Below, piece by piece: positions 30,756 to 32,665 of a stretch of DNA of 64,000 nt. The stretch lies in the NCBI RefSeq assembly GCF_017406825.1, contig NZ_JAFQXT010000027.1, forward strand, positions 1 to 64,000, given 5' to 3'. The notes below the pieces were generated by a model that worked only from the letters and a program-made list of their open reading frames with translations, did not search any database and was not told the DNA's origin. The stretch's first letter is position 1. Each line of letters opens with the position of its first letter. This stretch comes from Methanobrevibacter sp. Its GTDB lineage: Archaea; Methanobacteriota; Methanobacteria; Methanobacteriales; Methanobacteriaceae. The position numbers were made by a program, and so were the translations under genes.

Positions 30756-30868
30756 TAATTTATGTATATTATCTTTTTATAAATTAAAGTTTTCTAATTT
30801 TTGGGGTTATGTGAAAAATTTTTAAATAATTAAAATGAAAGTATTATTAACTTGTGGGGATTTTGCAC

Positions 30869-32062
30869 ATGACAAGTATAAAAGAATTATCAAAATACAG
30901 CAGAGTAGACAGGGAAAAATCCTTAATGATTGATGAAGTCTTAAAGGAATATGAAGAGCCAATGCTTGAAGAAAAGCTATTGCTAAAAGAGCTGCATGAA
31001 GATATATCATTCTCTTTTAAATTATCAAAAGTAGAATGTGATGATATATATGCTTCCAGTTCTGATAGCCTTCCATCAAAATACTGTCCGAAATGCGGTC
31101 GTGAATTTCCGGAAGGTGAAAATGTCTGTTTCGATTGTCTGGTTCATTTAAAGGAAATCTCAGATAAAGTGGATGTCAGCGAAATTAAATCAGCTCCCAA
31201 ATTCATATTTAATGGAGAAAATGATTTTGAAGACTTCAATAGATTATTAAATAAGGAAAATCTCGTGAAAATCAATGAATTCGATTTCTCTATCGATGAT
31301 TTTTCAGATATTGTGAAGGATATCAAGTCCCAGGCATTCAGAAATTTTGATGACCTTGTTAAAGCAAACGAGATAGATTTTGATTCACTTGACATTCTTG
31401 ATAAGGTTATTCTATTTACAAAATCATTTGTCAAAGTCGAGTATAAATCATTTGGCGGGCAATTGGGTTATTTTGAAACAGGCACAATATTCATCGATGA
31501 CAGACAAACCAAATCTCTTCAAATCACCACTCTGATTCATGAACTGTCCCATTTCTTAATTCAGGAAATTCTGATTCATATCCTATGCACAATATTGGAT
31601 GCTTCCAGAAATTCCTTCATGGAAGTGTTGTCCTCGTTCATTTTATCATATGCACCATTCACTCAACTTATTGACGAGTATTCCGCCCATAATGTTGAGG
31701 GAAGATTCACTGTTTTTGGTTTTCAGGACTACTCATCATATAAACAGATTGAGCAAAGTCTGAATGGTGAAATGTCATTTGAGGAAATCGAAATAATAAA
31801 ATCCATCGGAAACACATTCGCAATCAACATTAAGGAAATATTGGAGGCATTGATCGACAGGGATTTACGTGAGGAAATCAAAGAACAATTTTTAAGTGAT
31901 GTTCTGGATAGGCCTAACTACAATGCCTTGAAAATGGAAAACTGCCAAATCCTAAACGATGAAGGATTCATCAAGGCTATCTGGCTGATTTTAAATGACG
32001 GATGTGAAGTTGCAAGCTCCAATATCGAGAAGTTGGACGAGCTCAAAGAAATATTTACATAA
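30869..32062 (+). CDS. Zinc-ribbon protein with HExxH metallopeptidase-like domain
   Basis: From the ATG at 30869 (upstream GTGGGGA; the frame start at 30854 is less likely) the protein has 397 residues. A zinc ribbon at C73, C76, C87, C90 (CPKCGREF and CFDC) is followed by a linker and a candidate zincin: IHELSHFL with H224, E225, H228, and IDEYSAH with E270 as a possible third zinc ligand, 42 residues on. That spacing recalls minigluzincins such as IrrE. There is no signal peptide or clear membrane segment, so it acts in the cytoplasm. I do not recognise the family. Two small genes follow closely, forming an operon of unknown purpose. Confidence 0.75.
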   Translation: MTSIKELSKYSRVDREKSLMIDEVLKEYEEPMLEEKLLLKELHEDISFSFKLSKVECDDIYASSSDSLPSKYCPKCGREFPEGENVCFDCLVHLKEISDKVDVSEIKSAPKFIFNGENDFEDFNRLLNKENLVKINEFDFSIDDFSDIVKDIKSQAFRNFDDLVKANEIDFDSLDILDKVILFTKSFVKVEYKSFGGQLGYFETGTIFIDDRQTKSLQITTLIHELSHFLIQEILIHILCTILDASRNSFMEVLSSFILSYAPFTQLIDEYSAHNVEGRFTVFGFQDYSSYKQIEQSLNGEMSFEEIEIIKSIGNTFAINIKEILEALIDRDLREEIKEQFLSDVLDRPNYNALKMENCQILNDEGFIKAIWLILNDGCEVASSNIEKLDELKEIFT

Positions 32063-32084
32063 CTTGAAGACATATACTATATGT

Positions 32085-32378
32085 ATGAATATTGAAGAAA
32101 GAATTTTGAAATTAAATCAGGAACACGCTAACGAAACCATCGACATCAATGAGGTACTTTTAACAATCGTAACCAAATTCCAACTCTTCGAACCTTGCAG
32201 TTACTTGTCAGAGGATGAGGAATGGGTGGATGTGGTTATAGTGTCACTGGAGTCAAATGAGATGTCACAGCCATTATGCATCAAAAAAAGCGAAATAACC
32301 AGTTTCGGAATTTTTAAACGCGAAGAGATTGAAGTCGAATTCGTCACTCAAAAGGGATCTGAGGATTTATACCAATGA
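32085..32378 (+). CDS. Hypothetical protein, 97 residues
   Basis: This small acidic soluble protein begins MNIEERILKLNQEHANET and is rich in Glu and Ser. It has a mixed alpha/beta look (VDVVIVSLES, EITSFGIFKREEIEVEFV) and two Cys. No family is recognised. The ATG at 32085 lies 22 bp after the zincin gene; another ATG at 32081 is in a different frame. It overlaps the next gene by 4 bp (ATGA), which indicates coupled translation and a joint function with the zincin-like protein. Confidence 0.65.
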   Translation: MNIEERILKLNQEHANETIDINEVLLTIVTKFQLFEPCSYLSEDEEWVDVVIVSLESNEMSQPLCIKKSEITSFGIFKREEIEVEFVTQKGSEDLYQ

Positions 32379-32665
32379 ATGAAATTTTTTTGGATGATGA
32401 TTTTGATGTTGAAAATACATCAAATCACATCAATCATATAATGTCAAAGTGGTCAATTCAGTTTCTGGACATCAACGGTCCCAATTGGGTAATCTATGAT
32501 TATGATATGGAAGTGAAATACGTCTTTTTCTTCCACGTTGACTTTGAAGACATTGAAACAAGAATAAAACTGGAAGATTTGAAACTGAATGTCATACATC
32601 ACATTGAATCCCTAAAGGATGAAACAAATTATAGGGATAATCTTATCAATGCAGTATTTCTCTAA
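32375..32665 (+). CDS. Hypothetical protein, 96 residues
   Basis: This small acidic soluble protein has aromatic-rich stretches (WSIQFLDINGPNWVIYDY, VKYVFFFHVDFEDIETR). No family is recognised and no metal motif is visible. It is the last gene of the operon led by the zinc-ribbon/HExxH protein and starts inside the stop codon of its neighbour. The three genes could encode a peptidase-like protein and its two partners, but this is a guess from layout. Confidence 0.62.
   Translation: MNEIFLDDDFDVENTSNHINHIMSKWSIQFLDINGPNWVIYDYDMEVKYVFFFHVDFEDIETRIKLEDLKLNVIHHIESLKDETNYRDNLINAVFL

What the first reader, a model, noticed from the sequence alone, without database searches (positions are those of the whole stretch)
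30869..32665. Unknown three-gene operon led by a zinc-ribbon/HExxH protein
The first protein combines a four-Cys zinc ribbon with HELSH and IDEYSAH (E270), resembling a minigluzincin such as IrrE, which cleaves a repressor to switch on stress genes. Two small acidic proteins follow, the second overlapping the first by ATGA. None of the three belongs to a family I know. A peptidase with nucleic-acid-binding ribbon plus two partners would be a plausible sensing or toxin-control system.
Basis: partly seen in the sequence, partly recalled or inferred. Interest (0 to 1): 0.62.

Follow-up and report, generated by a model that had tools for sequence, protein, structure and literature searches.

The report
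Peptidase operon with proteasome-docking-like tail
Methanogens of the genus Methanobrevibacter carry a small operon that encodes an uncharacterised zinc-peptidase-like protein next to a tiny protein whose tail ends in the tripeptide signature other proteins use to plug into the cell's protein shredder (the proteasome), which suggests an unrecognised protein-destruction module.

Summary
In detail: three co-directional genes (P1 30869-32062, P2 32085-32378, P3 32375-32665; P2/P3 overlap by ATGA) in a Methanobrevibacter genome. P1 has a four-Cys ribbon (C73, C76, C87, C90), HELSH (224-228) and E270. In 50 homologues down to about 25% identity HExxH is invariant wherever covered and E270 is 50/50; weak profile and fold matches point to IrrE/PprI, ArdC and selecase, so a minigluzincin-type peptidase is well supported. 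P1 orthologues form one clade; a separate paralogue is nearly genus-wide, and other relatives are fused to MrcB_N, HsdR-like or TPR modules. The new element is P2: it models as an Hfq/Sm-like barrel with a disordered tail, and across three subfamilies (35 sequences, about 22% identity at the extremes) the penultimate residue is Tyr in 34 and position -3 is Leu/Phe in 34, an HbYX tail, the 20S-proteasome docking signature. P1 lies directly upstream of P2 in 37 of 40 copies. Nothing supports a toxin system or a local repressor target. Most likely the operon serves targeted proteolysis: P1 clips, P2 docks on the proteasome. P1's class is strong, P2's docking a prediction, their cooperation inference.

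The parts
30821..30828 (+). TATA-box-like TTTAAATA about 45 nt upstream of the P1 ATG (candidate archaeal promoter)
   Evidence: read from the sequence; inference, no promoter test for archaea available
30869..32062 (+). P1, 397 aa zinc-ribbon + gluzincin-like peptidase
31085..31138 (+). four-Cys zinc ribbon of P1 (C73, C76, C87, C90)
   Evidence: CxxC-x10-CxxC in 20/20 operonic orthologues that reach it
31538..31552 (+). HELSH, residues 224-228 of P1, presumed zinc site and catalytic Glu
   Evidence: 49/49 homologues that cover it
31676..31699 (+). E270-Y-S-A-H-N-V-E277, presumed third zinc ligand (E270) and flanking conserved block
   Evidence: E270 50/50, A273 50/50, E277 49/50
32085..32378 (+). 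P2, 97 aa, predicted Hfq/Sm-like small beta-barrel with disordered C-terminal tail
   Evidence: fold; family
32367..32375 (+). codons of the C-terminal Leu-Tyr-Gln (HbYX tripeptide) of P2
   Evidence: Hb-Tyr-X in 34 of 35 family members, codons vary synonymously
32361..32366 (+). GAGGAT, Shine-Dalgarno-like site for P3 inside P2; GAG frozen in 20/20 orthologues
32375..32665 (+). P3, 96 aa, conserved small acidic protein of unknown fold; starts in the ATGA overlap
32561..32623 (+). most conserved stretch of P3 (RIKLEDLKLNVIHHIESLKDE)

Best explanation
A three-gene intracellular proteolysis module of Methanobrevibacter. P1 is a cytosolic gluzincin-type zinc metallopeptidase (HExxH plus distal Glu, IrrE/ArdC/selecase-like fold) with an N-terminal zinc ribbon that probably recognises a partner or substrate. 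P2 is a small Hfq/Sm-like barrel, probably oligomeric, whose flexible tail ends in an HbYX tripeptide and is predicted to dock into the alpha-ring pockets of the 20S proteasome. P3 is a small conserved partner. The proposed mechanism: P1 makes a limited, selective cut in a target (or is itself guided to it by P3 and the ribbon) and P2 couples the module to the 20S core, opening or capping it so that the clipped protein is finished off without an ATPase. Shown here: genes, residue conservation, operon conservation, the HbYX tail as a protein-level feature. Predicted: folds, proteasome docking. Inferred: that P1 and P2 act in one pathway, and the order of events. My separate estimates: P1 is a gluzincin-type peptidase 0.85; P2 binds the 20S proteasome through its tail 0.55; P1 and P2 work in one proteolytic pathway 0.4.
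For: P1: invariant HExxH and E270 over paralogues with different N-termini; 9 of 14 diverse members give sub-threshold M78 matches, and a TPR-fused relative just passes Pfam's gathering score (22.3 against 22.0); Foldseek top hits PprI, BlaR1 peptidase domain and M. jannaschii selecase; VIA top rows ArdC Z 5.0, IrrE 4.5, PprI 4.5. P2: penultimate Tyr in 34/35, -3 Leu/Phe in 34/35, -1 variable (Q, M, L, F), while the preceding ~15 residues are poorly conserved; Leu/Phe and Tyr codons vary while GAG, the ribosome site of P3, is frozen, so the tail is kept at protein level; relatives in another genus and the genus-wide paralogue have no P3 overlap and still end LYM/LYQ/LYL/LYF. Chance rate of such tails: 11 of about 930 other genes in the same loci and 0.93% of archaeal proteins (PMC11475706). 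Fold of P2: AlphaFold core pLDDT 70-85, tail disordered; Hfq dominates the VIA list at Z 6-6.7, rmsd about 2 A over 54-60 residues. Linkage: P1 next to P2 in 37/40 copies, across two different upstream neighbourhoods. Precedents: PbaB, a small ATP-independent archaeal activator that needs its C-terminal HbYX (PMC3605417); Wss1, a minigluzincin-like protease that works with Cdc48 (PMC4559962).
Against: No binding or protease data. The P1 model is poor (mean pLDDT 48.5) and no Foldseek E-value is significant; the VIA Z-scores are under 8. The own-genome PAN ends MFG and Cdc48 ends QYM, so the local proteasome's preferred tail is not exactly LYQ. One P2 relative (L172) lacks the tail. P2-P3 exist without P1 in three loci and P1-P3 without P2 in two genomes, so the parts are separable. 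Nothing identifies a substrate.
Confidence: 0.4

Rival explanations
1. IrrE/ImmA-type switch: P1 senses stress and cleaves a transcriptional repressor, and P2/P3 are regulators or inhibitors of P1. P2's tail has some other role.
For: Closest folds are IrrE/PprI. The genus-wide paralogue of P1 is flanked by a conserved small winged-helix gene in most genomes (L035, L036, L040, L042, L045, L047, L104), as a protease-repressor pair would be.
Against: No HTH gene in or next to the window's operon or its orthologues; P1 has no HTH or GAF part like PprI; the paralogue's wHTH neighbour lies on the opposite strand and the same wHTH family also occurs elsewhere.
Confidence: 0.25
2. RNA-linked module: P2 is a true Sm/Hfq-type RNA-binding ring, and its conserved C-terminus contacts RNA, P1 or P3 rather than the proteasome.
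For: Predicted Sm-like fold with archaeal Hfq among the matches; Hfq family C-termini are flexible.
Against: No Pfam LSM or Hfq match for any of 20 members; P2 is strongly acidic (21 D+E to 8 K+R), unlike an RNA binder; an invariant penultimate Tyr with a free C-terminus is not a known Hfq feature.
Confidence: 0.15
3. Toxin-antitoxin or defence cassette built around a DNA-targeted protease.
For: Relatives of P1 are fused to MrcB_N and to HSDR_N-SWI2/SNF2-T1R_D3 modules typical of restriction systems; nearest fold by VIA is the antirestriction protein ArdC.
Against: Window copy has no such module, no PADLOC match, no viral relatives in IMG/VR scans, one clade with stable gene order.
Confidence: 0.08

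Closest known systems
IrrE/PprI-type peptidases (Pfam PF06114, M78)
   Same: HExxH plus distal Glu, similar order of helices and strands, top fold matches
   Different: P1 itself is below the gathering score; no HTH/GAF parts; has a zinc ribbon; no repressor gene beside it
Selecase/jannalysin minigluzincins of Methanocaldococcus jannaschii
   Same: archaeal minimal gluzincin; matched by Foldseek and VIA (Z 2.9-3.4)
   Different: selecase is about 110 aa, single domain, no operon partners of this kind known to me
Wss1/SPRTN DNA-protein-crosslink proteases
   Same: minigluzincin-like protease that works with the Cdc48 branch of protein degradation (PMC4559962); SPRTN 6mdx at VIA Z 3.0
   Different: no sequence relation detected; no SUMO/Cdc48-binding motifs sought or seen
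PbaB / PAC2 family archaeal proteasome activators
   Same: small non-ATPase protein with flexible C-terminal HbYX (PMC3605417)
   Different: different fold (three-layer alpha-beta-alpha, tetramer), no PF09754 match for P2
Hfq / archaeal Sm-like proteins
   Same: predicted N-helix plus five-stranded barrel, VIA Z 6-6.7
   Different: no LSM/Hfq profile match, acidic, HbYX tail

Membership tests
Gluzincin-type metallopeptidase (P1) | HExxH with a distal Glu as third zinc ligand, conserved in the family | tested here: met
   49/49 and 50/50; zinc binding itself not tested
Gluzincin-type metallopeptidase (P1) | zincin fold with the two His and the Glu around one metal | tested here: inconclusive
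   model pLDDT 48.5; ranking favours gluzincins but scores are low
M78/IrrE family (P1) | match to PF06114 above the gathering score | tested here: not met
   17.5 bits against 22; one TPR-fused relative reaches 22.3
M78/IrrE family (P1) | HTH repressor substrate encoded nearby | tested here: not met
   no such gene in the operon or its flanks
HbYX proteasome-binding proteins (P2) | hydrophobic-Tyr-any at the free C-terminus, conserved | tested here: met
   34 of 35, protein-level, in two genera
HbYX proteasome-binding proteins (P2) | HbYX-dependent binding or gate opening of the 20S proteasome | not testable with these tools
   needs a pull-down or peptidase assay
PbaA/PbaB (PAC2, PF09754) (P2) | match to PF09754 | tested here: not met
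   no match among 20 members up to E 0.5
Sm/Hfq superfamily (P2) | Sm fold (N-helix and five-stranded barrel) | tested here: inconclusive
   pLDDT 68; Hfq dominates VIA at Z 6-6.7, under 8
Sm/Hfq superfamily (P2) | match to an LSM or Hfq profile | tested here: not met
Toxin-antitoxin / defence system | match to a known defence protein model | tested here: not met
   no PADLOC match for P1, P2, P3

The most novel reading that the evidence does not exclude
Methanobacteriaceae possess a new class of ATP-independent 20S-proteasome regulator, an Sm-type ring (possibly with the alpha-ring's own seven-fold symmetry) carrying HbYX tails, with one genus-wide paralogue and one specialised copy that is operon-coupled to a dedicated zinc peptidase.
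Probability: 0.25. Interest if true: 0.85.

Novelty: new variant of a known kind. Interest (0 to 1): 0.5.

Why it matters
Archaea lack most of the eukaryotic machinery that chooses proteins for the proteasome, and known archaeal 20S partners are few (PAN, Cdc48, Pba proteins). A small protein family with a conserved HbYX tail, kept next to a peptidase in dominant gut and rumen methanogens, is a concrete and easily tested candidate for a further route into the proteasome. It also defines an unnamed gluzincin family with 1-5 copies per Methanobrevibacter genome and swappable sensor modules, none of it covered by Pfam or NCBIfam cut-offs.

Tried and rejected
Sequence search of the PDB with P1 and with the family profile: no relative. 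Viral contigs: no relatives of P1 or P3. PADLOC: no match for the three proteins; hits only for the AAA+ protein of the neighbouring module in other genomes. P3: sub-threshold KH_DEAH11, CBM64 and others in a minority of members, treated as chance. HNH for P3 and Chordopox_A15 for P2: chance-level. AAA+/SseB genes upstream in other species were considered as part of the system: rejected as essential, because in the window's own genome they sit on another contig and P1-P2-P3 keep their order without them. That the conserved ...LYQ is only a by-product of the P2/P3 overlap was tested and rejected. P2 family sought in 115 genomes of another archaeal phylum: none (no positive control there).

Full report
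What is there. The window is a stretch of a Methanobrevibacter genome (relatives fetched by protein search are Methanobrevibacter MAGs; own contig G000:C14). Three genes run in the same direction: P1 30869-32062 (397 aa), P2 32085-32378 (97 aa) and P3 32375-32665 (96 aa). A TATA-like TTTAAATA at 30821-30828 and a G-rich stretch before the ATG are compatible with a promoter and ribosome site for P1 (sequence reading, inference). P3 starts inside the P2 stop (ATGA). Downstream, a convergent membrane-anchored gene closes the operon.

P1. None of the three proteins reaches a Pfam or NCBIfam cut-off. A homologue set of 50 proteins from the genus keeps HExxH in 49 of 49 that cover it and E270 in 50 of 50, with A273 50/50, E277 49/50 and H274 47/50. 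Members with quite different N-termini keep these residues, so the zinc-site signature is under selection. Nine of 14 diverse members give weak Peptidase_M78 matches, and one TPR-fused relative just passes the gathering score (22.3 against 22.0). The AlphaFold model is poor (pLDDT 48.5, five sequences allowed), yet Foldseek ranks PprI first, the BlaR1 peptidase second and M. jannaschii selecase third out of 350,542 chains, and VIA-align puts ArdC (Z 5.0), IrrE and PprI (Z 4.2-4.5) on top, with jannalysin, SPRTN and BlaR1 lower. None of these scores is significant alone; their agreement with the motif is what carries weight. The four-Cys ribbon is present in all 20 operonic orthologues that reach it. 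P1 is acidic, so a nucleic-acid role for the ribbon is not indicated.

The P1 family. A profile of the catalytic domain finds members in 89 of 152 genomes of the phylum, in four genera of one family, with up to five copies per genome. A maximum-likelihood tree puts the operonic P1 proteins in one clade (support 100/99) and a nearly genus-wide paralogue of about 327 aa in another (100/99). That paralogue sits between a multi-zinc-ribbon gene and a small winged-helix gene on the opposite strand, upstream of the RNase P/proteasome-alpha/SBDS/exosome gene cluster. Other relatives carry MrcB_N, HSDR_N-SWI2/SNF2-T1R_D3 plus zinc ribbons or TPR repeats before the peptidase domain. So this is a peptidase family with exchangeable targeting modules.

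P2 and its tail. P2 is found in Methanobrevibacter next to P1, as tandem pairs in a second genus, and as a genus-wide paralogue of about 115 aa elsewhere in the genome. Over 35 sequences of the three subfamilies, pairwise identity falls to about 22%, and the only invariant positions are a Pro, a Glu, a Lys and the penultimate Tyr (34/35). Position -3 is Leu or Phe in 34/35, position -1 is Gln 29, Met 3, Leu 1, Phe 1, Lys 1, and positions -4 to -20 are poorly conserved. This is an HbYX tail. Two by-product explanations were tested. First, the overlap with P3: in 20 orthologues the GAG codon that serves as P3's ribosome site is frozen and the final CAA is forced by ATGA, but the Leu/Phe codons (TTA, TTG, CTG, CTT, TTT, TTC) and the Tyr codons (TAT, TAC) vary, so the residues and not the bases are kept. 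Second, relatives that have no overlapping P3 still end in LYM, LYQ, LYL or LYF. Tails of this kind occur in 11 of about 930 other genes in the same loci and in 0.93% of archaeal proteins (PMC11475706). The predicted structure of P2 (pLDDT 68; core strands 70-85; last 13 residues disordered) is an N-terminal helix and five strands; after one beta-barrel domain of a cytochrome, nearly all of the VIA top 50 are Hfq chains, archaeal ones included, at Z 6-6.7 and about 2 A over 54-60 residues. That is suggestive, not proof, and no LSM/Hfq profile matches.

Gene association. Of 40 window-type P2 copies, 37 have a P1 upstream on the same strand, usually within 150 bp; in nine the gap is larger (450-1160 bp), and in the five largest (and in G027, which has lost P2) an extra acidic ~300-aa gene lies between where inspected. 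The exceptions are G114, G123 and the second copy of G106, which keep P2-P3 alone. Two genomes have P1-P3 without P2, one of them with a broken P1 (G027). P3 alone occurs in about ten more genomes. In many species the operon follows an AAA+/zinc-ribbon/SseB gene group; in the window's genome that group is on another contig and uppS/tatD lie upstream instead. P1-P2-P3 is therefore a real unit, with P1-P2 the tightest pair, though not obligate.

Mechanism. The most economical reading is targeted proteolysis: P1 as a selective zinc peptidase and P2 as a small, tail-bearing partner of the 20S core. Precedents exist for each half: archaeal PbaB activates the 20S through a C-terminal HbYX without ATP (PMC3605417), HbYX proteins of unknown function are common in archaea and one, MJ1494, was shown to bind and activate a 20S (PMC11475706), and the minigluzincin-like Wss1 works with Cdc48 (PMC4559962). 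An IrrE/PprI-type stress switch, in which ssDNA activates repressor cleavage (PMC10904395), is the main rival; it lacks a repressor gene here. The local PAN ends in MFG and the Cdc48 proteins in QYM, so LYQ would be a third kind of tail competing for the same pockets.

What is shown and what is not. Shown: the genes, residue conservation, operon conservation, and the tail as a protein-level feature. Predicted: both folds and proteasome docking. Inferred: joint action of P1 and P2 and the role of P3. No paper in the held library joins Methanobrevibacter with HbYX, and I found none describing this operon.

Noticed in passing
L095:5723-9220 (-), L096:2598 onward: P1-family peptidase domain fused behind HSDR_N, SWI2/SNF2 helicase and T1R_D3 domains plus zinc ribbons: a restriction-R-subunit-like protein ending in a protease.
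   Followed up: partly
L056:6344-8152, L057:5708 and 14793, L055, L026-L029: P1-family peptidase domain behind an MrcB_N (modified-base-type restriction) domain, in several genomes two copies 9-10 kb apart.
   Followed up: partly
L168:5979-6323 and homologues L169-L182: Genus-wide paralogue of P2 with the same ...LYQ end, often just upstream of type I restriction S and M genes and near an MtrA-like gene.
   Followed up: partly
L061:5081-5977, L003:1360-2331, also L007, L009, L010: Highly acidic ~300-aa protein of unknown family inserted between P1 and P2 (or P1 and P3) in a subclade.
   Followed up: no
L048:239-5338, L043, L060, L152: Conserved module AAA+ ATPase with zinc ribbon - zinc-ribbon membrane protein - SseB-domain proteins, often directly upstream of P1-P2-P3; present in 51 of 66 genus genomes, on another contig (C51) in the window's genome.
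   Followed up: partly
L035:5717-6697 with L035:6699 (-): Core P1 paralogue with a small winged-helix gene on the opposite strand, next to the RNase P-proteasome-exosome cluster: a possible peptidase-repressor pair.
   Followed up: no
L003:256-1225 (G027): P1 is interrupted by stops and P2 is missing in this M. thaueri MAG, consistent with joint decay of the pair (or assembly error).
   Followed up: no
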